Part shown: positions 14,326 to 26,624 of the stretch, piece after piece
Position numbering within the stretch: the first letter of the stretch is position 1
Layout of the letters: the number at the start of each line of letters is the position of its first letter
NCBI RefSeq assembly: GCF_010669145.1
Contig: NZ_CP048635.1
Coordinates: 1,620,501-1,684,500 of the forward strand
From: Rhizobium oryzihabitans
GTDB lineage: Bacteria > Pseudomonadota > Alphaproteobacteria > Rhizobiales > Rhizobiaceae
Length of the DNA stretch: 64,000 nucleotides
Direction of reading: 5' to 3'
Notes under the pieces: generated by a model
The model's database searches: none
What the model saw: the letters and a program-made list of their open reading frames with translations, nothing else
Told to the model about the DNA's origin: nothing
Program-made: the position numbers and the translations under genes

Positions 14326-15045
14326 ATGCAAGACGGGACCGGACCTCTTCTGATTTTCGACTGCGACGGCGTTCTCGTCGACAGCGAGCCGGTCTCCATC
14401 TCGGTTCTTCTCGACATGCTCTCCCATCTCGGCGTCGAGATGGGAGAGGAGGAAGCCTATAACCGCTTTCTCGGACGCAGCGTTGCCAGCATGACGACGA
14501 CGCTGTTTGAGGATTACGGTGTCGAAACCGATATCGATTTTCTCGACCATATGCGCGCAACATTGTTCGAGCGTTTCCGCACCGAACTCAGGCCCATTGA
14601 CGGCATTGCCGAAACGCTGGACAGGCTTGTGGGCCTGAAACGCTGCGTTGCCTCTTCCAGCCAGCCGGAGCGCATCCGTTATTCGCTGGGGCTGACCGGC
14701 CTGATCGACAAATTCGAGCCGCACGTCTTCAGCGCCACCATGGTGAAGAATGGCAAGCCGGCGCCCGATCTTTTCCTGCATGCCGCGCGTGAAATGGGCG
14801 CTGATCCGCGTCACTGCATCGTGATCGAGGACAGCCCGGCGGGCATTGCGGCGGCAAAGGCAGCCGGCATGGCGGTTTTTGCCTTTACCGGCGGCTCGCA
14901 TGCGCGGTTTCCCGCATTCCGGGAAAAGATCGCGGGTCTCGGGGCCGATGCCACGTTTGACGCGATGCCGGATTTGGTCCAACTTGTCGACGGTTATGTG
15001 GGGAAGGGCGGTTTTGACAGCCAGGTGGCACGTGACGCAGGCTGA
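14326..15045 (+). CDS. HAD-superfamily phosphatase, beta-phosphoglucomutase-like
   Basis: 239-aa soluble hydrolase. HAD motif I is IFDCDGVLVDSEP (residues 9-21), motif II is VASSS, the motif III lysine is in NGKPAPDLFL and motif IV is VIEDSPAGIAAA. The cap domain after motif I marks subfamily I. It starts 7 bp after the mtlK stop with only a weak AAGAG site, suggesting coupling. The substrate is probably a sugar phosphate such as a polyol phosphate, which is inference from the operon. Confidence 0.85.
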   Translation: MQDGTGPLLIFDCDGVLVDSEPVSISVLLDMLSHLGVEMGEEEAYNRFLGRSVASMTTTLFEDYGVETDIDFLDHMRATLFERFRTELRPIDGIAETLDRLVGLKRCVASSSQPERIRYSLGLTGLIDKFEPHVFSATMVKNGKPAPDLFLHAAREMGADPRHCIVIEDSPAGIAAAKAAGMAVFAFTGGSHARFPAFREKIAGLGADATFDAMPDLVQLVDGYVGKGGFDSQVARDAG

Positions 15046-15105
15046 AGGAAACCATGCCTGCCGCCGCCCGGAAGTCGTTGCGCAAGGGATGGAATTGAAG
15101 TCTTG

Positions 15106-16680
15106 ATGCGTCAGAATCTCGTGGCTGTCGATGTCGGTACGGCGAGCGCGCGCGCCGGGATTTTCGATCCGGCCGGCCGGCTTCTCGCCCGCTCCACCCA
15201 TCCCATCCTGATGCAGAGGCCGCAGGAAAACCACGCTGAACATGATTCCACCGACATATGGAACGCGGTCTGCATCGCGGTCAGGGCAGCGCTTGCCGAG
15301 GCGGCTGTTCCGCGCGAAAGCATTGCCGCCATCGGGTTCGACGCCACCTGCTCGCTGGTTATCCGCGACGAAAAGGGAGAGCCGGTTTCGGTCTCCGTCA
15401 CTGGCAAAGACAAGTTCGACACGATCGTCTGGCTTGACCACCGCGCAATCGCCGAGGCCGATCGGTTGACGGCATCCGGCCACCGGGTTTTGGATTTTGC
15501 CGGTAACAGCGTGTCGCCGGAAATGCAGATGCCGAAGCTGATGTGGCTGAAGAAGAATTTGCCGGCAAGCTGGGCCCGCATGTCTTTCGCCTTCGATCTG
15601 GCGGATTTCCTCACCTGGAAAGCGACCGCTTCGGCGAAGCGTTCAAATTGCACGCAGACGGCGAAGTGGAATTTCCTGGCGCAGGAAAATCCCGGCTGGC
15701 AGGCGGATTATCTCGAACTGGCCGGGCTTGGCGATCTGAAAGAGCGGGCCGGGCTGCCTGACACCACGGTGATGCCGGGGGAAAGCATCGGTCCCCTGTC
15801 GCCTGAAGCGGCGGCAGAACTTGGTCTGGATACGGGTTGCCAGGTGGCGGCGGGCATGATCGATGCCTATGCGGGTGCGCTCGGCGCGCTCGGCGGATGC
15901 CTTTCGGGGGATGTGGGCCGGCATGTGGCGCTGATTGCCGGCACCTCAAGCTGCCTTGTCGCCATGTCCGAGCGGCAGATGCCCGGCCACAGTCTCTGGG
16001 GTCCCTACTGGCAGGCGATCCTGCCCGGCCATTGGCTGGTGGAGGGCGGGCAATCGGCCACCGGCGCGCTGCTCGATCATATCGTGCGCATGCATGCGGC
16101 CGGTGGTGAGCCGGATACGGCGCTGCATGCCCGGATCGTTGCACGGGTGGCTGAGTTGCGCGCACTCGAGGGCGAGGCCTTCGCCGATCGGCTGCATGTG
16201 CTGCCGGATTTCCACGGCAACCGCTCGCCGCTGGCTGATCCGCACGCCGTCGGCGTCATCAGCGGGCTGACGCTGGATACGTCTTTCGACAGTCTCTGCC
16301 GGCTTTACTGGCGCACCGCAGTGGCAATCGCGCTTGGCGCACGCCATGTTCTCGATGCCATGGAGCGCTTCGGTTATGCGGTGGAAAGTCTGCATGTCAC
16401 CGGAGGCCATGTGAAAAACCGGCTCCTGATGGAACTTTACGCTGATGTGACCGGCAAACGCATCGTGGTTCCCGCCACCGCTGACGCCGTTCTTCTCGGC
16501 ACGGCAATGACGGCGGCCGCCGCCGGCGGCGTCCATGCGGATATTGCGGCGGCGGGGGCCGCCATGTATCCGGGCAATGCGGAAATTTCCGGAAATCCGG
16601 CGCTTGCGTCCCGCTATGAGCGAGATTATCGCCGGTTTCTTGCCATGTACCGCCATCGCCAGGAGCTGGAAAGCCTCTGA
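15106..16680 (+). CDS. FGGY-family pentulose kinase (D-ribulokinase-like)
   Basis: 524-aa sugar kinase. The N-terminal phosphate-binding motif is LVAVDVGTASARAGIFD. GFDATCSLVI is characteristic of the YpCarbK/YDR109c subgroup of FGGY kinases that act on D-ribulose. The C-terminal domain has HVTGGHVKNRLLMELYADVT. An in-frame TTG precedes the chosen ATG. As last gene of the polyol operon it would phosphorylate the ketopentose made from ribitol or arabitol. No dedicated fructokinase is visible nearby, so fructose must be phosphorylated elsewhere. Confidence 0.85.
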   Translation: MRQNLVAVDVGTASARAGIFDPAGRLLARSTHPILMQRPQENHAEHDSTDIWNAVCIAVRAALAEAAVPRESIAAIGFDATCSLVIRDEKGEPVSVSVTGKDKFDTIVWLDHRAIAEADRLTASGHRVLDFAGNSVSPEMQMPKLMWLKKNLPASWARMSFAFDLADFLTWKATASAKRSNCTQTAKWNFLAQENPGWQADYLELAGLGDLKERAGLPDTTVMPGESIGPLSPEAAAELGLDTGCQVAAGMIDAYAGALGALGGCLSGDVGRHVALIAGTSSCLVAMSERQMPGHSLWGPYWQAILPGHWLVEGGQSATGALLDHIVRMHAAGGEPDTALHARIVARVAELRALEGEAFADRLHVLPDFHGNRSPLADPHAVGVISGLTLDTSFDSLCRLYWRTAVAIALGARHVLDAMERFGYAVESLHVTGGHVKNRLLMELYADVTGKRIVVPATADAVLLGTAMTAAAAGGVHADIAAAGAAMYPGNAEISGNPALASRYERDYRRFLAMYRHRQELESL

Positions 16681-16741
16681 TTTTGGCAAGAATGTTTGGC
16701 GATGGGGCACCCGCTCGATCCATATGCCCGTAGGACGCAGA

Positions 16742-17677
16742 TCAGATGCCCAGCGAGCGCTTCAGGCCGGTGAGGTTTTTCATGCGTGCCCTGCGCGTCT
16801 CGTCCGCGCCGGCAATCAGGCTGCAGAGCGTGAATTCCATCAGTGCGACGAGTTGCAGCAGGCCCTGGCCGCCATTCTGGGCGTGCGGCATGGCAAGACA
16901 GATATCGGCACTTTCAGGTCCCCACTCATAGAAACGGGTGGTGATCAAAAGGGTTCTGTAGCCGCTCTTGCGCGCCGTGGATGAGAGGTTCTGCAGCGGC
17001 GAGAGGCTGCCGCCGCAGTCCATGAGGATGAGAAGGGCTTTTGCCGGCTCAAAATCCCATAACGTCACATAAGCGGCGCTGTCGCTGCCGAGATAATGGA
17101 CCTGCTTGCGGTATTCCAGCAATCGCCCGTGAAAGTGGCGTCCTGTCCCCATGCCTTCGGGAGATGTGGCCAGAAAAACGTCGGGCGTCGAGGCAATCTC
17201 GTTCATCGCCAGACGCCAGATCGGCTGTGAGGTCATGTCGAAAGCGGTCTGAATGGCCTGTATCTGCTGCGACAGAAGCTGCGAAAACGGATTGGACTGT
17301 TCGCTGCTTCCAGACGATGCGGGCTGTTCCTCACCAACCACTTCCTCCGCATGGCGCAGATCGGCACGGATATCGCTGAATTGCCGGTATCCGAGCGAAC
17401 GCAGGAAGCGGCCGACCGTCATCGGGCTGAGGCCGAGCTTTGCAGCCAGTGTCTGCGCCGTTTCGAATGGCAGCTCGTCCAGATGCTCGATCAGATATTT
17501 GGCGATCTTGCGCTCGGAGGGTGTGCCAGCCTTCATGGCACGCGTGAGGTTCAACAGCAGCTTTTCCACCAACGCCTCATTCTTATGATTATTGAACGAT
17601 GATGCATGCGCGCGCGCAAAACAGCGTGCGAACCGCGTTTTGACGGTGGGGGAAGCTTTTCCGGCCATGTCCTCCAC
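16742..17677 (-). CDS. RpiR-family transcriptional regulator
   Basis: 311-aa regulator. An HTH_6 domain covers about residues 40-105 (GTPSERKIAKYLIEHLDELP; then LGLSPMTVGRFLRSLGYRQF). A SIS sugar-isomerase domain follows (VFLATSPEGMGTGRHFHG, ALLILMDCGGSLSPLQNL), which senses a phosphosugar. The first 33 residues are Arg-rich and unlike the family, so the true start may be internal. It is convergent with the pentulose kinase. An AT-rich dyad at 17695-17715 just upstream is its likely binding site. Confidence 0.85.
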   Translation of the reverse strand: MEDMAGKASPTVKTRFARCFARAHASSFNNHKNEALVEKLLLNLTRAMKAGTPSERKIAKYLIEHLDELPFETAQTLAAKLGLSPMTVGRFLRSLGYRQFSDIRADLRHAEEVVGEEQPASSGSSEQSNPFSQLLSQQIQAIQTAFDMTSQPIWRLAMNEIASTPDVFLATSPEGMGTGRHFHGRLLEYRKQVHYLGSDSAAYVTLWDFEPAKALLILMDCGGSLSPLQNLSSTARKSGYRTLLITTRFYEWGPESADICLAMPHAQNGGQGLLQLVALMEFTLCSLIAGADETRRARMKNLTGLKRSLGI

Positions 17678-17694
17678 CGGACCGGAATGCGAAT

Positions 17695-17715
17695 TATAAT
17701 AGATGTTTTATTATA
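17695..17715. promoter_or_regulatory. AT-rich dyad, candidate RpiR operator
   Basis: Perfect arms TATAATA (17695-17701) and TATTATA (17709-17715) surround GATGTTT, 18 bp upstream of the RpiR start in an otherwise GC-rich area. RpiR regulators commonly bind AT-rich dyads and repress their own genes; the assignment here is inference. Confidence 0.5.
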
Positions 17716-17867
17716 TTTTAGAGATATCTTTTATTCAAGGGAAATTCCATCTGCGGTTTAATTCCAAGCGGTTGGCGTCTTGCCGTGCTTCTTGCAGAGC
17801 TGGCGGCAAGCTCTTATCTCTCGCTCAGTCAGAAAGTTTCAACGCGGAAGCGTCAAGGGAGTTCCGA

Positions 17868-18605
17868 ATGATATTCGATGCGGCAAGGCTGGCGTTTCAA
17901 AATCTCTTCGCCGCCGAGACCCGGTCTGTTTTCTGGAAGGTTCTGGGGCTGACGCTTCTGGTGCTGGCGGCGCTGTGGTTCGCCATCCGCTCTATCTTCA
18001 TCTATTTCGCCCTGCCGTGGGTGGATACGCTGATCCCCGGCGTGCCAGATTGGGCGGGATGGCTGACGTTCGTTTTCGCCATTTTCGCCGGCATAGGACT
18101 GGCGCTGGCATTGGCGCTGCTGATTTCGCCGGTCACCGCCGTCATTGCCGGCCTGTTTCTCGACGATGTCGCCGAAGTGGTGGAAAAAAAGACCTATCCC
18201 AATGATCCGCCAGGCCAGGCGATGCCGATCGGCGAGGCGGTGCTTTCCTCGATCAAGTTCTTCGGCGTCGTTATTGCCGGCAACCTCATCGCGCTTTTGC
18301 TGCTGCTGGTGCCGGGTGTGAACCTCATCGCGTTTTTTCTGGTCAACGGCTATCTGCTGGGACGGGAGTTCTTCGAATTTGCGGCGATGCGTTTCCGCAC
18401 ACCGGCCGAGGCGAGGCTGTTCCGCTCAAAACACCGCACCACCGTGTTTATGGCCGGGCTGGTGATCGCCGCATTTCTTGCCGTCCCGTTCCTGAACCTT
18501 CTGACACCGCTTTTCGCCGCCTCGATGATGGTGCATCTGCACAAGGCCGTCAGCCGGCGTGATCCTTTATTCGCCGCTGGCCGCACCGAACAGCTGCGCG
18601 GGTAA
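17868..18605 (+). CDS. EI24/CysZ-family membrane protein
   Basis: 245-aa polytopic membrane protein, annotated in related genomes as sulfate-transporter (CysZ-like). Four hydrophobic blocks are seen: VLGLTLLVLAALWFAIRSIF, LTFVFAIFAGIGLALALALL, VVIAGNLIALLLLLVPGVNL and VFMAGLVIAAFLAVPFLNLL. The region GYLLGREFFEFAAMRF is typical of EI24 proteins. ATG 17868 has AAGGGAG; upstream in-frame codons lack family similarity. Its 3' end overlaps the convergent nth gene by 39 bp. No sulfur-assimilation genes are adjacent, so the transport role is unproven. Confidence 0.8.
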   Translation: MIFDAARLAFQNLFAAETRSVFWKVLGLTLLVLAALWFAIRSIFIYFALPWVDTLIPGVPDWAGWLTFVFAIFAGIGLALALALLISPVTAVIAGLFLDDVAEVVEKKTYPNDPPGQAMPIGEAVLSSIKFFGVVIAGNLIALLLLLVPGVNLIAFFLVNGYLLGREFFEFAAMRFRTPAEARLFRSKHRTTVFMAGLVIAAFLAVPFLNLLTPLFAASMMVHLHKAVSRRDPLFAAGRTEQLRG

Positions 18606-19349
18606 TTCCACCAGCGGCGCCGGAATATCGAAGGTCTTTTCCGGCGACTTGCAGATATCGGCAATCACGCAGCGTTCGCATTCCGGCTTGCGCGCCTTGC
18701 AGCAATAACGCCCGTGCAGGATCAGCCAGTGATGGGCATGGAACAGATATTCTTCGGGAATGATGCGGACGAGCCGGTCTTCCACCTCGTCCGGGGTTTT
18801 CCCCGGCGCAAGACAGAGCCGGTTGGCGATGCGGAACACATGCGTATCCACGGCAAGCGTGGGCACGCCGAAGGCCATGGACATCACCACATTGGCCGTC
18901 TTGCGGCCGACGCCCGGCAGGGTGACCAGCTCCTCGCGGGTTTTCGGCACCTCGCCGCCGAAATTGTCGATCAGCATCTGCGACAGGGCAATGACGTTTT
19001 TGGCCTTGTTGCGGTAAAGCCCGATGGTCTTGATGTGGCCGATCAGCTGTTCTTCTCCGAGCGCCAGCATTTTTTCCGGCGTATCGGCCACCTTGAACAG
19101 CGCCCGCGTCGCCCGGTTCACGCCCACGTCGGTCGCCTGCGCGGAAAGCGCCACGGCCACCAGCAGGGTGAAGGGATTGGTATGTTCCAGCTCGCCTTTC
19201 GGCTCCGGCCGCTGGATGGAGAAACGCCGGAATATTTCGGTCAGCTCGTCCCTGGAATAGGCCGTCTTCACCCGAACCGGTTTGCGGGCGGATGTCGCAT
19301 TTGACTTTTTCAAGGTTTGGGTGCTGGATCGTTTTTTGGCGACTGTCAT
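18567..19349 (-). CDS. nth: Endonuclease III, DNA glycosylase/AP lyase
   Basis: 260-aa base-excision repair enzyme for oxidised pyrimidines. The helix-hairpin-helix LPGVGRKTANVVM carries the catalytic lysine, and VDTHVFRIANRL has the catalytic aspartate. The [4Fe-4S] ligands are the four cysteines in CCKARKPECERCVIADIC (spacing 6-2-5 within the last four). An N-terminal basic stretch of about 30 residues (SSTQTLKKSNATSARKPVRV) is extra relative to E. coli Nth. Tail-to-tail overlap with the CysZ-like gene. Confidence 0.95.
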   Translation of the reverse strand: MTVAKKRSSTQTLKKSNATSARKPVRVKTAYSRDELTEIFRRFSIQRPEPKGELEHTNPFTLLVAVALSAQATDVGVNRATRALFKVADTPEKMLALGEEQLIGHIKTIGLYRNKAKNVIALSQMLIDNFGGEVPKTREELVTLPGVGRKTANVVMSMAFGVPTLAVDTHVFRIANRLCLAPGKTPDEVEDRLVRIIPEEYLFHAHHWLILHGRYCCKARKPECERCVIADICKSPEKTFDIPAPLVELPAQLFGAASGE

Positions 19350-19386
19350 GACCTATCTATAGCCAGCCCGCCTTGAGGAAATCAAC

Positions 19387-19868
19387 GTGGATACGCTCAA
19401 CGACCACCCGATTTTCGCGGCGGAACTCGTTCCGCACCGTTCGCTTGGCAGAAGAGGTTTCCGGCTGCTTCTTGCCTTGTCCGGGCTCGCCTGCCTCCTT
19501 TATGGCGGTTTTTTCCTCGCCAGCGGGCATGGCCCGTCGGCCTGTTTTTCGGGCTGGATTTTCTGCTGCTTTATGTCGCCTTCCGCGCCAATTACCGGGC
19601 CGCAAAGGCGCGGGAGGAGGTCAGCGTCTCGCGCACGAGCCTGTCGATCCGCAAGTTCTCGCCGGCAGGGCGCATGGTGGAGCACCGTTTCAATCCCTTC
19701 TGGGCACGCTTCAGGGTTCAGCGGCACGACGAAATCGGCATTGTCTCCATGCATGTCACGGGCGAAGGCAAGGCGACCGATATCGGGTCGTTTCTCAATC
19801 CGGATGACCGGGAAAGTTTCGCCAAGGCTTTTGGCGGTGCGCTGGCGAATGTCAGGAGGCGGATGTGA
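19387..19868 (+). pseudogene. DUF2244 integral membrane protein, split by a -1 frameshift
   Basis: Conserved alphaproteobacterial membrane protein of unknown function. GTG 19387 begins MDTLNDHPIFAAELVPHRSL, followed by helix FRLLLALSGLACLLYGGFFL. The frame is then lost at AGCGGGCATGG (about 19523-19533), where one G seems to be missing. In the next frame the family sequence resumes: WPVGLFFGLDFLLLYVAFRA, then MVEHRFNPFWARF and GSFLNPDDRESFAKAFGGAL, ending at 19868. Adding one base gives a normal protein of about 160 residues. A homopolymer sequencing error is likelier than a real mutation. Confidence 0.8.
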
Positions 19869-19957
19869 GGGAATCAGGAAGTGTCGACGCGCTCTGCCGC
19901 CCTCATCCCTGTGCTCGTCACAGGAATCCTGTGTATTGCGTCTGTGCTAGAATGGTA

Positions 19958-20095
19958 GCGGACGGAAGGCCGTCGGGATCCTGGTCGTTTGAGACCGCTT
20001 GCTGGCTCTGGTCCTCCGTCCGCCTTTGATATCCCAACCTGAACAGTTGATTGAGGCCGTGAGCGCGGACCTCGAAGCACAGGATGAGGCTTGCC
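19958..20095 (+). ncRNA. Putative IS110 bridge RNA, copy 1
   Basis: Target loop: stem GCGGACGGA (19958-19966) with TCCGTCCGC (20015-20023), an inner hairpin GGTC/GACC (19983-19996), left guide GGGATCC (19975-19981) and right guide GCTGGCT (20001-20007). The left guide reads like target GG(A/G)ATCC; the right guide is complementary to AGCCAGC. Donor loop: outer stem CAACCT (20035-20040) with AGGCTTG (20087-20093), inner stem TTGAGG/CCTCGA, left guide ACAGTTG (20043-20049), equal to the right end, and right guide GCACAGG (20077-20083), complementary to CCTGTGT at core plus left end. Folded by eye; ends are inferred. Confidence 0.72.
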
Positions 20096-21025
20096 ATGAT
20101 ACACCCTGTTTTCATTGGATGCGACGTCGCCAAGGCGCATCTTGATCTTTTCGACGGCCGGACATCCCGGCATATCCGCATCGACAACACCGCTGCCGCC
20201 ATTCATGCATGGCTGCAAAGCCTGGAGGGGCAGGAGGCGACGGTCATTCTGGAGGCGACCGGGCGTTATGACAGGCAGCTGCGCGCGGCTCTCGATCGGC
20301 AACAGCGTCCGTATTGCCGGGTCAACCCCGCCCGGGCGCGCGACTTCGCAAGAGCCACCGGCCGCCTGGCCAAGACCGACGCCATCGATGCCCGCCTGCT
20401 GGCACGCATGGGCGAAACGCTTGGCCCCGCAACCAGCACACCACCCGATCCGGCCCGGCAGGCGCTTGCCAGCTTCCATACAAGGCGCGATCAGCTCGTT
20501 GCCATGCGCCAGCAGGAGCGGCTTCGCCTTTCCAGCGCAGAACCCATGGAGCACGATAGTCTGGAGCGCCATCTCATCTGGCTGGACGGCGAGATCGAGG
20601 CGATCGAAAAAGCCTGTCACGCCCATGTCCGGGAAAACGCGGAACTGAACGAACAAAGCACCAGGCTTCGTTCCATTCCGGGCGTCGGGCCAGTCACCGC
20701 ATTCACGCTGATGGCGCATATGCCGGAACTGGGCGGCAGCTCTTCCAAAGCCATGGCGGCATTGGCGGGACTTGCTCCCTTCAATGCCGACAGCGGCATC
20801 AAACGCGGCCAGCGCCATATTCGCGGCGGACGAAAGCGCGTGCGCGATGCCCTCTACATGGCGGCGCTGGTGGCTTACAGGCTGAAGACCGCCTTCGCCC
20901 GCACGGCGCAAACCATGCAGACCAAGGGCAAACCGTTCAAGGTCATGATCATTGCCATCGCCCGCAAAATCCTCGTCGCCGCAAACGCAATCCTCAGGGA
21001 TAAAACCGTCTTTGCTAAAACCTGA
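20096..21025 (+). CDS. IS110-family DEDD transposase/recombinase, copy 1
   Basis: 309-aa recombinase from ATG 20096 (MIHPVFIGCDVAKAHLDLFD). An in-frame ATG at 20084 lies inside the predicted RNA donor loop and has no ribosome site, while ATGAGGC precedes 20096. The N-terminal RuvC-like DEDD domain shows Asp in GCDVAK, Glu in ILEATGRYD and the Asp pair in KTDAIDARLL. The C-terminal Transposase_20 domain has RSIPGVGPVTAFTLMAHMPE and LAPFNADSGIKRGQRHIRGG, whose NADSG serine is the probable nucleophile. The frame is intact, so the element is likely active. Confidence 0.94.
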   Translation: MIHPVFIGCDVAKAHLDLFDGRTSRHIRIDNTAAAIHAWLQSLEGQEATVILEATGRYDRQLRAALDRQQRPYCRVNPARARDFARATGRLAKTDAIDARLLARMGETLGPATSTPPDPARQALASFHTRRDQLVAMRQQERLRLSSAEPMEHDSLERHLIWLDGEIEAIEKACHAHVRENAELNEQSTRLRSIPGVGPVTAFTLMAHMPELGGSSSKAMAALAGLAPFNADSGIKRGQRHIRGGRKRVRDALYMAALVAYRLKTAFARTAQTMQTKGKPFKVMIIAIARKILVAANAILRDKTVFAKT

Positions 21026-21242
21026 CAATACAGTTGCCAGCCAGCCCAAGTCTTTGGGATGAAAGGACTCTTTCCGCCACGCGGACGCGCGTCGGCTGGA
21101 TTCCTGTGACGAGCACAGGAATGAGGGGGTGGGGATATTCCGGCAGATAAAACATTTAGGTTGCGTATTGTGATGCAACGCAAGAAACGGGTGGAGACCG
21201 ACGCGCTTTGGTGGTTTTCTGTGAAGCGTTAGGAGAAATGCG

Positions 21243-22115
21243 ATGAACGCCAATATCATGCTGAATGAAGACATCACCCCCATCGGATCGGATTACGACA
21301 CGGTGCGCGGGGTTATCGAGCTTTTGACGCTGGATTATCGCGAGCAGCTCTCCCTCGAAGCCATTGCCGCAGAGCTCGGCCAGTCGCCGACGCAATTGCA
21401 GAAGACCTTCACCCGTTGGGCTGGCCTTTCACCCAAGGCATTCCTGCAGGCCGTGACGCTCGATCATGCCAAGAGGTTGTTGCGCGAAGAGGACTTGCCG
21501 CTGCTGGAAACCTCGATCGAGGTCGGCATGTCGGGGCCGGGCCGCCTGCACGATCTGTTCGTCACCCATGAGGCCATGTCGCCGGGCGAATGGAAGGCCA
21601 AAGGCGGTGGGCTGACGATCCGTTACGGTTTCCACACCTCGCCCTTCGGGCTTGCGCTGGTCATGGTGACAGATCGCGGCCTTGCCGGCTGCGCCTTTGC
21701 CGATGCCGGTGATGAAAGGGCCTGTTTCGAGGACATGGCCGGCCGCTGGCCGAATGCGGGCTATGTCGAGGATCGCGAAGCGACGGCGCCCTATGCCGCG
21801 CGCATTTTCGATCCGTCCATGTGGTCGGCGGACAGGCCGCTGCGCGTCGTGTTGCTCGGCACGGATTTTCAGGTGCGGGTTTGGGAGAGCCTGTTGAAAA
21901 TCCCGATGGGCCGCGCCGTCACCTATTCGCATATCGCCTGCGATATCGGCCAGCCCACGGCTTCCCGCGCTGTCGGTGCGGCCGTCGGCGCCAACCCCGT
22001 TTCCTTCGTCGTTCCCTGCCACCGTGCTGTCGGCAAAAGCGGGGCGCTGACCGGTTATCACTGGGGCCTGACCCGCAAGAGGGCGATGCTCGGCTGGGAA
22101 ACGGGGAAGGTGTGA
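21243..22115 (+). CDS. Ada-like methylated-DNA-protein cysteine methyltransferase with AraC HTH domain
   Basis: 290-aa repair protein that transfers methyl groups from O6-methylguanine to its own cysteine. Residues 20-120 form an AraC-type HTH domain (LSLEAIAAELGQSPTQLQKT). Residues 125-287 form the Ogt domain, with acceptor Cys259 in VVPCHRAVG and the arginine-finger region QPTASRAVGAAVGANP. The N-terminal zinc/methylphosphotriester domain of E. coli Ada is absent, so induction by a methylated N-domain cysteine is not possible. It lies between two directly repeated IS110 copies. Confidence 0.92.
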   Translation: MNANIMLNEDITPIGSDYDTVRGVIELLTLDYREQLSLEAIAAELGQSPTQLQKTFTRWAGLSPKAFLQAVTLDHAKRLLREEDLPLLETSIEVGMSGPGRLHDLFVTHEAMSPGEWKAKGGGLTIRYGFHTSPFGLALVMVTDRGLAGCAFADAGDERACFEDMAGRWPNAGYVEDREATAPYAARIFDPSMWSADRPLRVVLLGTDFQVRVWESLLKIPMGRAVTYSHIACDIGQPTASRAVGAAVGANPVSFVVPCHRAVGKSGALTGYHWGLTRKRAMLGWETGKV

Positions 22116-22182
22116 GGCTGGTCTCCCTCATCCCTGTGCTTGTCACAGGGATCCTGTGTATTGCGTCTGTGCTAGAATGGTA

Positions 22183-22320
22183 GCGGACGGAAGGCCGTCG
22201 GGATCCTGGTCGTTTGAGACCGCTTGCTGGCTCTGGTCCTCCGTCCGCCTTTGATATCCCAACCTGAACAGTTGATTGAGGCCGTGAGCGCGGACCTCGA
22301 AGCACAGGATGAGGCTTGCC
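22183..22320 (+). ncRNA. Putative IS110 bridge RNA, copy 2
   Basis: Same sequence as 19958-20095. Left target guide at 22200-22206, right target guide at 22226-22232, donor guides at 22268-22274 and 22302-22308. At this site both target guides match without wobble. Confidence 0.7.
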
Positions 22321-23250
22321 ATGATACACCCTGTTTTCATTGGATGCGACGTCGCCAAGGCGCATCTTGATCTTTTCGACGGCCGGACATCCCGGCATAT
22401 CCGCATCGACAACACCGCTGCCGCCATTCATGCATGGCTGCAAAGCCTGGAGGGGCAGGAGGCGACGGTCATTCTGGAGGCGACCGGGCGTTATGACAGG
22501 CAGCTGCGCGCGGCTCTCGATCGGCAACAGCGTCCGTATTGCCGGGTCAACCCCGCCCGGGCGCGCGACTTCGCAAGAGCCACCGGCCGCCTGGCCAAGA
22601 CCGACGCCATCGATGCCCGCCTGCTGGCACGCATGGGCGAAACGCTTGGCCCCGCAACCAGCACACCACCCGATCCGGCCCGGCAGGCGCTTGCCAGCTT
22701 CCATACAAGGCGCGATCAGCTCGTTGCCATGCGCCAGCAGGAGCGGCTTCGCCTTTCCAGCGCAGAACCCATGGAGCACGATAGTCTGGAGCGCCATCTC
22801 ATCTGGCTGGACGGCGAGATCGAGGCGATCGAAAAAGCCTGTCACGCCCATGTCCGGGAAAACGCGGAACTGAACGAACAAAGCACCAGGCTTCGTTCCA
22901 TTCCGGGCGTCGGGCCAGTCACCGCATTCACGCTGATGGCGCATATGCCGGAACTGGGCGGCAGCTCTTCCAAAGCCATGGCGGCATTGGCGGGACTTGC
23001 TCCCTTCAATGCCGACAGCGGCATCAAACGCGGCCAGCGCCATATTCGCGGCGGACGAAAGCGCGTGCGCGATGCCCTCTACATGGCGGCGCTGGTGGCT
23101 TACAGGCTGAAGACCGCCTTCGCCCGCACGGCGCAAACCATGCAGACCAAGGGCAAACCGTTCAAGGTCATGATCATTGCCATCGCCCGCAAAATCCTCG
23201 TCGCCGCAAACGCAATCCTCAGGGATAAAACCGTCTTTGCTAAAACCTGA
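22321..23250 (+). CDS. IS110-family DEDD transposase/recombinase, copy 2
   Basis: 309 aa, identical in sequence to the copy 1 product, with all DEDD residues and the NADSG motif intact. The start is chosen at the fifth codon of the longest frame for the same reason: the upstream ATG falls in the RNA donor loop and lacks a ribosome site. Confidence 0.94.
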   Translation: MIHPVFIGCDVAKAHLDLFDGRTSRHIRIDNTAAAIHAWLQSLEGQEATVILEATGRYDRQLRAALDRQQRPYCRVNPARARDFARATGRLAKTDAIDARLLARMGETLGPATSTPPDPARQALASFHTRRDQLVAMRQQERLRLSSAEPMEHDSLERHLIWLDGEIEAIEKACHAHVRENAELNEQSTRLRSIPGVGPVTAFTLMAHMPELGGSSSKAMAALAGLAPFNADSGIKRGQRHIRGGRKRVRDALYMAALVAYRLKTAFARTAQTMQTKGKPFKVMIIAIARKILVAANAILRDKTVFAKT

Positions 23251-23376
23251 CAATACAGTTGCCAGCCAGCCCAAGTCCTTGGGCTGAAAAGACTCTTCCC
23301 GTCGCGCCGACGCGCGCCGGCTGGATTCCTGTGACAAGCACAGGAATGAGGAAGAGACTGAAACGCCTGACGAGGC

Positions 23377-24374
23377 CTAAACCAGCTCCATCAACGCCCT
23401 TGCCGCCGCCTCGTCGGTGATCAGCGTATTACATCCGATACGTTTGATGGTGGCGCGGATGGCGACGGCGCGGTGAGCGCCGCCGGAGGCAAGGACGATA
23501 TGCTTGGCCTTGCGCAGCGTGTCGAGATCTATCGCCATGGCGCGCTGATTGATCGGGTGATCGACGGAACGGCCTTCCGCGTCGATGAAGTTGAACATCG
23601 TGTCGCAGACACAGCCGGCGTCGATGAGTTCCTGAAGCGTCGCCTTCGAAATGAAGCCTTCCGACAGCGATGTCGAATGCGGGCCGATATCGCCGCAGGA
23701 GACAATGGCGAGATCAAGGGTTTCGGCCAGATCGTAAAGCGTCGCAAGTCCGCATTTTTCGATCAGCGCCCGTTTGGTCTCGACGGAATCCACCAGTAGC
23801 GGTGCGAGAAACATGTAACATTCCGCGCCGAGCGCGCTCGCCAGCCGCCAGGTGTAATCGAGCGGGTTGGTCTGGTGCACGGCGACGATGCCGCCGAGCA
23901 GTGAGACGACCTTGCAGTTTTCCCGGCGCGGCGGACGAAAGCTCGATAGCGATGCGGTCATGGTGCGGCCCCAGCCGACGCCGATGGTGGCGCCATTCGG
24001 TACCGCTTCAGAGAGAAATTGCCCGAGCGCCAGGCCCACGGCCTTGGCGGTGCCTTCAGCACTTGCCTTGCCGGGGGATGAGCCGGGGAGGGAATGATCA
24101 CCGCCTCATCCAGCCCATAAGCCGCCTCCAGCCGGCCGGCGAGCTCGACGAAATCCTCGATGCCTTCATTGATCCAGATCTGCACCTCGGAGCGCTTCAT
24201 CGCCTCGTCGAGAAGACGGATGACGGTGGAGCGGCTAATGCCGAGTTTCTCGGCGACATCTTTCTGCGTCATGCCCTGATTATAATAGAGCCACGCGGCG
24301 CGCAGCCTCAGCGAAGCCGCTTCCGAATAGGCCGTATGGGTTTCTCTTCTCAGTTTCGCCACGGTTTCCGCCAT
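23377..24374 (-). pseudogene. SorC-family (EryD-like) sugar-binding regulator, split by a -1 frameshift
   Basis: The N-terminal half from ATG 24374 has the HTH LRAAWLYYNQGMTQKDVAEK followed by LGISRSTVIRLLDEAM, running to DEAVIIPSPAHPP. There the frame is lost in a run of five C (reverse strand; GGGGG at about 24073-24077). In the next frame the SorC effector domain continues: GLALGQFLSEAVPNGATIGV, then GWGRTMTASL, to the stop at 23377. One extra C restores a continuous protein of about 332 residues. It is divergent from transaldolase, hinting at pentose-phosphate or erythritol-type control. The break sits in a homopolymer and may be a sequencing error. Confidence 0.8.
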
Positions 24375-24569
24375 TCTTTATGGACGGCCGAGTATCGCAG
24401 GCGTGAAACTTATGTCAATTGCGATGCGCAAATGTCTTGACTTTTGGCCCTGTCGCTTGCGATAGTCGGAGCCGGACAGAACCGCGATTTCGGCCTTGGG
24501 CGCACCCATGGTGCGGGAACGAAAAGACGGCTTGGCAAGTTTTGAAGAGATCATGAAGGATCATTCGGT

Positions 24570-25535
24570 ATGACGTCTAAACTCGAACAACTTCGCGCCA
24601 TCACAACGGTCGTTGCCGATACCGGCGATATCGAGGCGGTTGCGCGCCTGAAGCCGGTGGATTGCACCACCAACCCCACCATCGTTCTGAAAGCTCTCGG
24701 CACGCCCGCTTTTGCGGATGCGGTGAAGGAAGCCGTCGCCTGGGGCAAGAAGCAGGGCGGCCAGTCCGACGCCGTCGTCGCTGCCGTTGCCGATCGCCTC
24801 GCCATTTCCGTGGGTGCGGCTCTTGCCGGCCTCGTTCCAGGCCGCGTATCGACCGAAGTCGATGCGGACCTTTCCTTCGATACGCAGGCCTCCATCACCA
24901 AGGCGCGCCACATCATCGCCGCCTACAAGGAGCGCGGCATCGAGCGTGAACGCATCCTCATCAAGCTTGCTTCCACCTGGGAAGGCATCAAGGCTGCCGA
25001 GGTTCTCCAGTCCGAGGGTATCGACTGCAACCTGACGCTCCTGTTCTCGCAGGCACAGGCCATCGCCTGCGCCGAAGCCAAGGTCTTCCTCATCTCGCCT
25101 TTCGTCGGCCGTATCCTCGACTGGTACAAAAAGTCGACCGGCGAGACCTACACCGCCGAGACCGATCCGGGCGTTGTGTCGGTGCGCAGCATCTACAATT
25201 ACTACAAGGCCAATGGCATCAGCACCGTCGTCATGGGCGCATCTTTCCGCAATGTCGGCGAGATCGAGGCGCTTGCCGGTTGCGATCGCCTGACGATCAG
25301 CCCGGCTCTCCTGGAAGAGCTGGACAAGGACACCGGTACGCTCGAGCGCAAGCTTTCGCCCGACAACGCCAAGCCGGAGGCGCTGCAGTCGCTTGACGAA
25401 AAGGCGTTCCGCTGGGCGATGAACGAAGACGCGATGGCAACCGAGAAGCTCTCGGAAGGCATCCGTCTGTTCGCAAAGGATCTGGTGACGCTGCGCGAAA
25501 TGGTCCGCAAGGAACTGACGCTGGCTGCTGCCTAA
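24570..25535 (+). CDS. tal: Transaldolase B
   Basis: 321-aa pentose-phosphate enzyme that moves a dihydroxyacetone unit from sedoheptulose-7-phosphate to glyceraldehyde-3-phosphate. The Schiff-base lysine is Lys132 in [12 protein letters not shown]; Asp17 and Glu96 (RVSTEVDAD) are in place. Length and N-terminus ([20 protein letters not shown]) match TalB. A candidate promoter upstream is TTGACT near 24436 with a GATAGT-like -10 element. A strong terminator for it lies at 25813-25843, beyond a palindromic repeat. Confidence 0.95.
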
Positions 25536-25605
25536 TAAAAAAGGGGGAACATTGTGTTCCTCTTGGATAATTCGGGTGTTTGGCGAAAGCGTAGCATCCC
25601 CACCG

Positions 25606-25721
25606 CGTCACCCCGGACTTGATCCGGGGTCCAGTGCGATCAAGTCATTGATCGCAAAAGACTCATTCCTCACGGCGCAGACGCGCCGTGGCTGGATTCC
25701 GGCTCAAGGCCGGAATGACGG
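25606..25721. repeat. Palindromic intergenic element, variant ends
   Basis: It starts GTCACCCCGGACTTGATCCG with GGGGTCCAG and ends GGCTGGATTCCGGCTCAAGG with CCGGAATGACG; CGGCGCAGACGCGCCG lies in the middle. The same architecture as the IS110 target family, but the terminal palindromes differ and no good IS target remains. Confidence 0.7.
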
Positions 25722-25812
25722 AGGAGAGTTGCTCGGACTTTGTTATCAACCGCGACGGGAACCATCAACGCTCTCACCGCGTTTACACCACATAATCTCC
25801 AGTCACTCAAAA

Positions 25813-25843
25813 CGCGATCGGGCCCCTGCCGGTCGCGTTTTTT
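25813..25843 (+). terminator. Rho-independent terminator after tal
   Basis: A 9-bp stem CGCGATCGG/CCGGTCGCG (one wobble) with a 7-nt loop is followed by six T. AAAA precedes it, so it may also stop the convergent IclR gene, which ends at 25851. Confidence 0.85.
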
Positions 25844-25850
25844 GTGCGTT

Positions 25851-26624
25851 TCAGTCGCTTCCGTTTCCCGTCGCCACTTCGGAAATGCGCTTTGCCGCAT
25901 CGCGGATCAGCGCCTCGCAGGCCTCGCGCGTGGGCGCCTTGCCGCCGAGCGGGGTGATGTAGGGGCAGGTGATGACGGCAAGTGCTGTGCCGTCGAGCGT
26001 CAGCACCGGGGCGGAAATATTGCGCACGCCAGCGGTCTGAAGGCTGTCCATGGATTCGAAACCCTGTCGGCGCACCTCCGCCAGCCGCTCGGCAAGGCCT
26101 TCAGGCACTGTTTCGCCACCGCCCCGCACCTGCTCGGTGATCATGATCTCGCGTTGGGCGTCTGTCTGGAAGGCCAGAAGCACGTGGCCGGAACCGGTGT
26201 GGAACAGGCTCATCTGCGCCCCCACCCGCAGGGACATGGCCCAGTAGGTGGAAGATTCCTGCTGGGCGATGACGACCACGCTGCCGCGGTCATAGACCGC
26301 CAGGTGGCAGGCCTGCGCGGCGCTTGCGGAAAAATCGCGCATCACCGGTGCGGCAAAAGAAACGAGGCGGCGGATCGGTGCGTGGAAATGCGCCAGCCCG
26401 AACATCTTCAGCGTCAGTGAAAACCGGTCGCCCTCCAGCCGCTGCACGTAACCGCGGCGCACCAGCCGGTCCAGCATGCGGTAAAGTTCGTTCGGGCTTT
26501 TGCCGATCGCCTTGGCGATCTCGATCTGCGTCAGCCCGCCATCGGTGCGGGCCAGAAGCTCGAGAATATCAAGGCCCTTGTCGAGGGCAGGAGCGCGGTA
26601 TCTTTCGCTGTCGTCGTCGGTCAT
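25851..26624 (-). CDS. IclR-family transcriptional regulator
   Basis: 257-aa regulator. The N-terminal winged helix is ALDKGLDILELLARTDGGLT then QIEIAKAIGKSPNELYRMLD. The C-terminal effector domain includes SLFHTGSGHVLLAF and VRNISAPVLTLDGTALAVIT. ATG 26624 is chosen because GAGG lies six bases upstream and the 28 extra in-frame residues before it are unlike the family. It is divergent from an SDR oxidoreductase gene it probably controls. Confidence 0.88.
   Translation of the reverse strand: MTDDDSERYRAPALDKGLDILELLARTDGGLTQIEIAKAIGKSPNELYRMLDRLVRRGYVQRLEGDRFSLTLKMFGLAHFHAPIRRLVSFAAPVMRDFSASAAQACHLAVYDRGSVVVIAQQESSTYWAMSLRVGAQMSLFHTGSGHVLLAFQTDAQREIMITEQVRGGGETVPEGLAERLAEVRRQGFESMDSLQTAGVRNISAPVLTLDGTALAVITCPYITPLGGKAPTREACEALIRDAAKRISEVATGNGSD

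What the first reader, a model, noticed from the sequence alone, without database searches (positions are those of the whole stretch)
19930..20095. A bridge RNA with all four guide segments can be read in the left end of an IS110 element
Seen: the 166-nt left non-coding end holds two internal-loop hairpins. Loop 1 (stem 19958-19966/20015-20023) carries GGGATCC (19975-19981), equal to the left target half with core CC, and GCTGGCT (20001-20007), complementary to the right half AGCCAGC. Loop 2 carries ACAGTTG (20043-20049), identical to the element's right end, and GCACAGG (20077-20083), complementary to CCTGTGT at core plus left end with one wobble. Known: IS110 recombinases use an RNA with a target loop and a donor loop of this kind. 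Inference: this element is an RNA-guided recombinase with a 14-bp REP-like target and CC core. The chance of four guides matching in the right order and loops is low.
Basis: partly seen in the sequence, partly recalled or inferred. Interest (0 to 1): 0.92.

Follow-up and report, generated by a model that had tools for sequence, protein, structure and literature searches.

The report
Bridge RNA of a REP-targeting IS110 element
This jumping gene carries a small folded RNA that very probably guides its enzyme to one kind of repeat in the bacterial chromosome; the system type was described in 2024, and this is a well-supported new example with a slightly different cut-site code.

Summary
Confirmed, with one correction. 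The window holds two of six identical 1107-bp copies of an IS110-group element (19930-21036, 22155-23261), inserted at a CC core in REP-like palindromes. The left end encodes a two-loop RNA: in 15 related left ends 98.7% of structure cells pair, and 12 of 25 pairs change on both sides (0/500 shuffles). The best top-strand one is 19999-20005 (71/84), so the RTG is TTGCTGG, pairing core CC plus AGC. LDG and RDG hold. Handshake guides (20006-20007, 20084-20085) and a circle-junction promoter were missed. Sites track loops to single bases: guide G sits at G or A, guide A never at G (22 sites). The recombinase keeps IS621's DEDD and serine. It is a new member of the bridge-RNA recombinases. Its departure is a CC core, where T at position 9 is reported almost invariant in IS621 relatives; the guides changed with it. 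Transcript and activity could not be tested.

The parts
19930..21036 (+). IS110-group element, copy 1 (1107 bp)
   Evidence: Six copies identical over 1107 bp in the genome; boundaries from junctions with variable flanks
22155..23261 (+). IS110-group element, copy 2, identical; all internal parts below recur at +2225
19928..19929 (+). core dinucleotide CC, left junction (copy 1)
   Evidence: only CC is shared by left (..ATCC|TGTG) and right (..GTTG|CC|AG) junctions
21037..21038 (+). core dinucleotide CC, right junction (copy 1)
19948..19953 (+). -10 box TAGAAT; with TTGCCT made only at the circle junction (TTG 21034-21036 + CC + T 19930) and a 17-bp spacer it forms a sigma70-like promoter
   Evidence: -10 score over 15 elements peaks at spacer 17 (3.67 of 6; 0.2-2.53 at the other spacers from 10 to 25); activity not tested
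19958..20023 (+). target-binding loop hairpin (stem 19958-19966/20015-20023, further pairs 19968-19969/20013-20014; apical stem 19983-19986/19993-19996)
   Evidence: covariation
19975..19981 (+). LTG GGGATCC: pairs bottom strand of target positions 3-9, core included
   Evidence: 83/83 cells over 12 elements, best of 2820 diagonals
19999..20005 (+). RTG TTGCTGG (corrected register): pairs top strand of core CC + AGC, weakly beyond
   Evidence: 71/84 cells, best top-strand diagonal; positions 8-11 paired in 12/12
20006..20007 (+). handshake guide of the target loop (CT); first base pairs donor position 7 (G)
   Evidence: first base 14/14, second base 2/14; role by analogy with IS621 (PMC11208158)
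20038..20089 (+). donor-binding loop hairpin (outer stem 20038-20040/20087-20089; inner stem 20053-20059/20066-20073 with bulged A20069)
   Evidence: covariation
20043..20049 (+). LDG ACAGTTG, same as the right end of the element
   Evidence: own right-end 7-mer found in own left end in 33 of 35 elements, permuted mean 11.2
20077..20083 (+). RDG GCACAGG, pairs CCTGTGT (core + left end), one G.T wobble
   Evidence: 7/7 in 9 and 6/7 in 6 of 15 elements; follows two changes of the left end in L024 and L025
20084..20085 (+). handshake guide of the donor loop (AT); pairs target positions 7 and 6
   Evidence: first base 13/13 incl. 1 wobble, second 12/13 incl. 2 wobbles
20096..21025 (+). IS110 recombinase, 309 aa from ATG 20096 (SD-like GAGG 20086-20089); the in-frame ATG at 20084 overlaps the donor handshake guide
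   Evidence: NF033542 196.5 bits, PF01548, PF02371; DEDD + Ser aligned to IS621; choice of start codon inferred
21030..21036 (+). right end / left donor ACAGTTG
19900..19929 (+). left arm of the interrupted REP-like palindrome (CCCTCATCCCTGTGCTCGTCACAGGAATCC), core included
   Evidence: 69 arms CACAGGRATCCNGC in the genome, 0 for the reversed control pattern
21037..21126 (+). rest of the interrupted REP-like palindrome, core included

Best explanation
The element is an IS110-group transposon whose left non-coding end is transcribed into a bridge RNA. Excision as a circle joins right end-CC-left end and creates a promoter that drives the RNA and then the recombinase (inferred from sequence). 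The target loop pairs one segment (LTG GGGAUCC) with the bottom strand and one (RTG UUGCUGG) with the top strand of a site GGRATCC-AGC in REP-like palindromes. The donor loop pairs in the same way with ACAGTTG-CC-TGTGT of the circle. The recombinase (DEDD + serine) then cuts and exchanges strands at CC, helped by handshake pairs (C20006 with donor G7; A20084 and U20085 with target T7 and A6). Shown here: element boundaries, RNA structure by covariation, guide-target and guide-donor tracking, catalytic residues. Inferred from the family: transcription, RNP formation, chemistry, role of the handshake pairs.
For: Six identical copies, each at the same point of a REP-like palindrome and reading the same way from the arm. 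Structure covariation in 15 left ends. Diagonal scan over 12 elements: LTG best (83/83; 0/1000 permutations reach it), RTG best top-strand diagonal (71/84; 0/1000). Single-base tracking at 22 sites: position 5 guide A with A 9, C 1, G 0; guide G with G 10, A 2 (p = 2.2e-4); position 6 guide A with A 16; guide G with A 3, G 3 (p = 0.013). Ten more distant CT-core elements: RTG pairs 47 of 50 non-core cells, permuted mean 36.6, 0 of 5000 reach it. LDG 33 of 35; RDG and handshake guides. GGGATCC arms hold 4 of 6 insertions but 12 of 64 uninterrupted arms (one-sided p = 0.022). Protein: NF033542 'RNA-guided transposase' above cut-off; IS621 DEDD and Ser positions aligned. Model R1 at E <= 1 finds six RNAs in the genome, one at each of the six elements.
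Against: No transcript, RNP or recombination evidence. RTG positions 13 and 14 pair in only 6 and 7 of 12, and L001 and L006 have poor right flanks. L033 pairs only 2 of 5 non-core RTG positions. One S. medicae copy (L055) sits in a site with a left mismatch and an unmatched right half. Right ends of L047 and L032 differ by one base from their LDG. The second base of the target-loop handshake guide pairs in only 2 of 14. One of five covariation measures (further pair types) was reached by 14 of 500 shuffles. Related sequences are not independent, so permutation counts overstate significance. No Rfam family matched above chance level.
Confidence: 0.94

Rival explanations
1. The left end is a structured regulatory leader (or source of regulatory sRNA, as reported for ISPpu9) of the transposase, and the protein alone reads the REP site.
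For: The donor hairpin runs into the SD-like GAGG before the start codon; PMC8450116 (start of the abstract in a search listing) reports two sRNAs regulating the ISPpu9 transposase.
Against: A regulator need not carry loop segments that change with each element's insertion site, in the registers known for IS621. Both roles could coexist.
Confidence: 0.04
2. The four matches are coincidence or sequence carried over from the target by past insertions.
For: Each guide alone occurs in 7-45% of shuffles.
Against: 0 of 20,000 shuffles have all four in order; 83/83 LTG pairing over 12 elements; compensatory stems around the loops.
Confidence: 0.01
3. One reading: a 7-base RTG GCTGGCT reading AGCCAGC beyond the core (14-bp target).
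For: Perfect at three of the six own sites (L003, L004, L005).
Against: 55/84 against 71/84 over 12 elements; the core is included in every guide of IS621 (PMC11208160, passages); own sites AGACGCG and AGCCGAC.
Confidence: 0.03

Closest known systems
IS621 bridge RNA and recombinase (PMC11208160, PMC11208158; passages read)
   Same: Left-end RNA; target loop then donor loop; LTG, RTG, LDG and RDG all including the core; handshake guides; junction promoter; DEDD + serine recombinase; insertion into REPs (PMC1525189)
   Different: Core CC instead of CT; RDG can pair without a gap here; protein match E 5e-35, identity not computed; different host group
ISCro4 recombinase (PDB 9t56)
   Same: Closest solved relative by sequence, E 5.9e-37
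   Different: Only the protein match was seen; its RNA and core were not examined
ISEc21 and IS1111-type seekRNAs (PMC11187229, passages)
   Same: RNA upstream of tnp and order of matches as in the IS110 type
   Different: IS1111 elements carry the RNA downstream of tnp with the order reversed; not the case here
REP-targeting IS110 elements ISRm19, ISPpu9, ISPpu10, ISPa11 (PMC1525189, passages)
   Same: IS110 family, copies in REPs (4/4, 7/7, 7/7, 6/6 in that paper's table)
   Different: The passages read (2006) hold no guide RNA; identity of this element to ISRm19 not established (the 12 Sinorhizobium records are all S. medicae; one search listed only 60 of 883 records)

Membership tests
IS110 family (IS110 group) recombinase | RuvC-like DEDD domain plus Tnp domain with conserved serine | tested here: met
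   PF01548 + PF02371, NF033542 above cut-off; D10, E53, D95, D98, S233 (309-aa numbering) align with IS621 D11, E60, D102, D105, S241 (alignment, counted by hand; residues named in PMC11208158)
IS110 family (IS110 group) recombinase | long non-coding end upstream of tnp (IS110 group), not downstream (IS1111) | tested here: met
   166 nt before the ATG at 20096, 11 nt between the stop codon and the right end
Bridge RNA | two internal-loop hairpins conserved as structure | tested here: met
   25 pairs, 98.7% of 375 cells, 12 pairs with two-sided changes, 0/500 shuffles; the structure was drawn by me from the window element
Bridge RNA | target loop guides match the target with core included | tested here: met
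Bridge RNA | donor loop guides match the RE-core-LE junction | tested here: met
Bridge RNA | handshake guides next to RTG and RDG | tested here: met
   second base of the target-loop guide mostly unpaired (2 of 14)
Bridge RNA | CT core, T9 almost invariant (IS621 and relatives) | tested here: not met
   core CC; a common but not necessary trait: AT, GT and TT cores also support IS621 recombination (passages)
Bridge RNA | RNA transcribed from the circle junction and bound by the recombinase | not testable with these tools
   only the promoter-like TTGCCT-17-TAGAAT was seen
Bridge RNA | changing the guides redirects insertion | tested here: inconclusive
   natural variants only: sites follow loops; no experiment

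The most novel reading that the evidence does not exclude
A clade of bridge-RNA recombinases has recoded its core from CT to CC, with target and donor guides recoded in step. It uses G in the guide, which wobble-pairs, to let one RNA address polymorphic REP alleles. If so, the near-invariance of T9 is not a general rule, and guide evolution here is tuned to the spread of target variants in the host.
Probability: 0.5. Interest if true: 0.55.

Novelty: new member of a known kind. Interest (0 to 1): 0.4.

Why it matters
It is a clean natural data set for guide rules: identical copies in one genome, a countable pool of 64 uninterrupted arms of one pattern, and sister elements whose loops differ by one or two bases and whose sites differ accordingly. 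It adds a natural CC-core system, which would widen the sites reachable by bridge-RNA tools if active, and a warning that repeats at REP flanks can mislead guide assignment by eye.

Tried and rejected
Rfam scan of 15000-26000: three hits at E 0.38-0.9, all far below gathering score, none a bridge RNA. Solo bridge RNAs in the own genome at E <= 1: none. Start-codon sequestration by pairing of about 19952-19957 with 20090-20097 appears in the minimum-energy fold (z -2.33, 2 of 200 shuffles as stable), but by eye it is not kept in relatives; dropped. The single-column covariation scan was dominated by the CC/CT split between related elements and also gave unrelated columns; replaced by the diagonal scan. 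The first tree had rows in a wrong reading frame (L024, L040, L045) and is discarded; one search replaces it. RNAalifold paired the left-end terminus with the RDG (columns 1-6 with 156-161); this is the donor complementarity and was left out of the tested structure. PADLOC: no match.

Rows left out of counts: one search used 15 left ends (L045, L026, L027 and the more distant groups not included). One search used the 12 of these 15 with both flanks readable (L010, L020, L022 out); for the window element the majority flanks of its six sites were entered; for L023 the loop was moved by one base by hand in the per-element list and. The 22 sites leave out three S. medicae WSM419 sites that are the same places as in SU277. 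The 10 CT-core rows were those whose loops I could read by eye; near-copies (L151, L155, L158, L161), elements without a readable right flank (L141, L149, L153), and the groups L029/L036/L037/L041/L043, L030/L034/L038/L042 and L046 were not tested for target guides. The right-end 7-mers and the core labels were assigned by eye; L026 and L027 sit in C runs and their core is ambiguous. Pieces L011, L015, L017, L019, L031, L035, L064 were not used.

Full report
WHAT IS THERE. Both belong to a set of six copies identical over 1107 bp. Each encodes a 309-aa (from ATG 20096) or 313-aa (from ATG 20084) protein with PF01548 and PF02371, above the cut-off of NF033542 'IS110 family RNA-guided transposase'. 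The nearest solved proteins are ISCro4 and IS621. IS621's D11, E60, D102, D105 and S241 (named in PMC11208158, passages) align with D10, E53, D95, D98 and S233 of the 309-aa form (the PDB chain is numbered +2; counted by hand). Relatives at E <= 1e-30 occur in 56 of 394 genomes drawn from the family.

WHERE IT SITS. All six copies interrupt a REP-like palindrome at the same point: left flank GTCACAGGRATCC, right flank CCAG. Only CC is common to both junctions, so CC is the core. A pattern for one arm of this palindrome (CACAGGRATCCNGC) occurs 69 times in the genome and its reversed control 0 times. Five of the 69 are the far arms of inserted copies, leaving 64 uninterrupted arms, 12 of them GGGATCC. 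Insertions used GGGATCC arms in 4 of 6 cases (Fisher one-sided p = 0.022). All 39 genus genomes searched have the gene between the two copies. For the 11 of them given as loci besides the own genome, no element was seen in the stretches printed. By eye, an uninterrupted repeat of this type lay at the place of copy 1 in 4 (L165, L168, L169, L171) and at the place of copy 2 in 1 (L167).

THE RNA. I aligned 15 left ends, the window's and 14 whose proteins are 44.6-78.6% identical to it in the best segment. A structure of 25 pairs in four helices, drawn by me from the window element, pairs in 98.7% of 375 cells, with 12 pairs changed on both sides. None of 500 shuffles reached these two values; a third measure, further pair types (17), was reached by 14 of 500. 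Sliding the partner by 1-3 columns dropped pairing below 50%. A covariance model from the same 15 finds six places in the own genome at E <= 1, one at each element, and matches in 10 of 39 genomes of the genus at E <= 0.001.

TARGET GUIDES. For 12 elements with both flanks readable I scored 2820 seven-base diagonals of RNA against target with no prior choice of place. The best is RNA 19975-19981 with target positions 3-9 (83/83 cells, permuted mean 63.5). The best that pairs with the top strand is 19999-20005 with positions 8-14 (71/84, permuted mean 53.0); for both, 0 of 1000 permutations reach the value. Positions 8-11 pair in 12/12, 12 in 10/12, 13 in 6/12, 14 in 7/12. The finding's register for the right guide (20001-20007 with 10-16) pairs 55/84. 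It looked perfect because the flank repeats itself (CCAG-CCAG). In IS621 the core is likewise part of every guide (PMC11208160, passages). The next separate diagonal, 20080-20086 with positions 5-11 (63/84, permuted mean 53.9, 0 of 1000), is where the donor loop would meet the target after strand exchange. In ten more distant CT-core elements the right guide, in the same register, pairs 47 of 50 non-core cells against a permuted mean of 36.6 (0 of 5000; L033 alone pairs poorly, 2 of 5).

SINGLE-BASE TRACKING. Among 22 distinct sites of close relatives (read, tallied) the guide reads GGGATCC, GGAATCC or GGGGTCC. At position 5, guides with A sit at A (9), C (1) and never G. Guides with G sit at G (10) or A (2). 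At position 6, guides with A sit at A (16 of 16), and guides with G at A (3) or G (3). This asymmetry is what G.T wobble against A.C mismatch predicts. A non-canonical pair of an LTG G with a target T is reported in the IS621 structure.

DONOR GUIDES AND HANDSHAKE. The 7-mer at the right end is found in the element's own left end in 33 of 35 elements covering six versions of the motif (permuted mean 11.2, largest of 2000 permutations 20); the exceptions are L047 and L032. The RDG pairs 7/7 in 9 and 6/7 in 6 of 15 elements, and follows two changes of the left end (core C to T, position 13 G to C) in L024 and L025. The base after the RTG is C and pairs donor G7 in 14 of 14; its neighbour pairs in 2 of 14. 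The two bases after the RDG pair target positions 7 and 6 in 13/13 and 12/13, wobbles included. Their role is taken from IS621.

PROMOTER. Joining right end, core and left end gives TTGCCT-17 bp-TAGAAT. Over 15 elements the -10 score peaks at spacer 17 (3.67 of 6) against 0.2-2.53 at the other spacers from 10 to 25. The -35 exists only in the circle, as described for IS110 elements. Activity is inferred.

THE CC CORE. Eleven CC-core proteins, the window's among them, form a supported clade (99/98). It lies in a larger supported group of 15 with the CT-core pair L024/L025 and the ambiguous L026/L027. L045, elsewhere in the tree, also has CC. The tree needs three changes of label. PMC11208158 states that T at the second core position is almost invariant in IS621 and relatives and is contacted by the main chain of G63. 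The matching glycine (EATG) is present here and in most relatives, but not in L018 (CC), L024 and L025 (CT), L026 or L027, so it does not follow the core. 'CC core' occurs 0 times in PMC11208160, and a search for IS110 with 'core dinucleotide' lists only these two papers. The library lacks most subscription journals, so I do not claim that CC cores are unpublished.

WHAT IS NEW. The kind of system is known (2024). REP-targeting IS110 elements were reported by 2006 (PMC1525189, passages). 'Bridge RNA' with 'Agrobacterium' gave six papers, by title none about a native element (listing only). I file this as a new member of a known kind, with the CC core as its main departure.

Noticed in passing
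window 21243-22115: The two identical elements lie in the same orientation 2225 bp apart and flank an Ada-like gene (named by eye from the translation), like a composite unit.
   Followed up: partly
G410:C23:347749-347884 and 347998-348133 (L068 flank): Two bridge-RNA matches 249 bp apart; upstream of the second one L068 reads transposase-start-like sequence and an N: perhaps a tandem or misassembled junction.
   Followed up: no
L055 (S. medicae SU277 plasmid): One copy of the S. medicae relative has left flank GGCATCC and right flank CCTGTGACA, the other way round in a repeat, with a left mismatch and an unmatched right half: an apparent off-target.
   Followed up: partly
own genome: The REP-like palindrome is asymmetric: of 63 distinct arms read, GGGATCC goes with 8 of 23 AGCCA arms and 2 of 32 AGCCG arms.
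   Followed up: partly
L138, L147, L152, L156, L159 (G410): A sister element with guide GGGGTCC used two classes of palindrome: CCGGGGTCC (3) and CAGGGATCC (2).
   Followed up: yes
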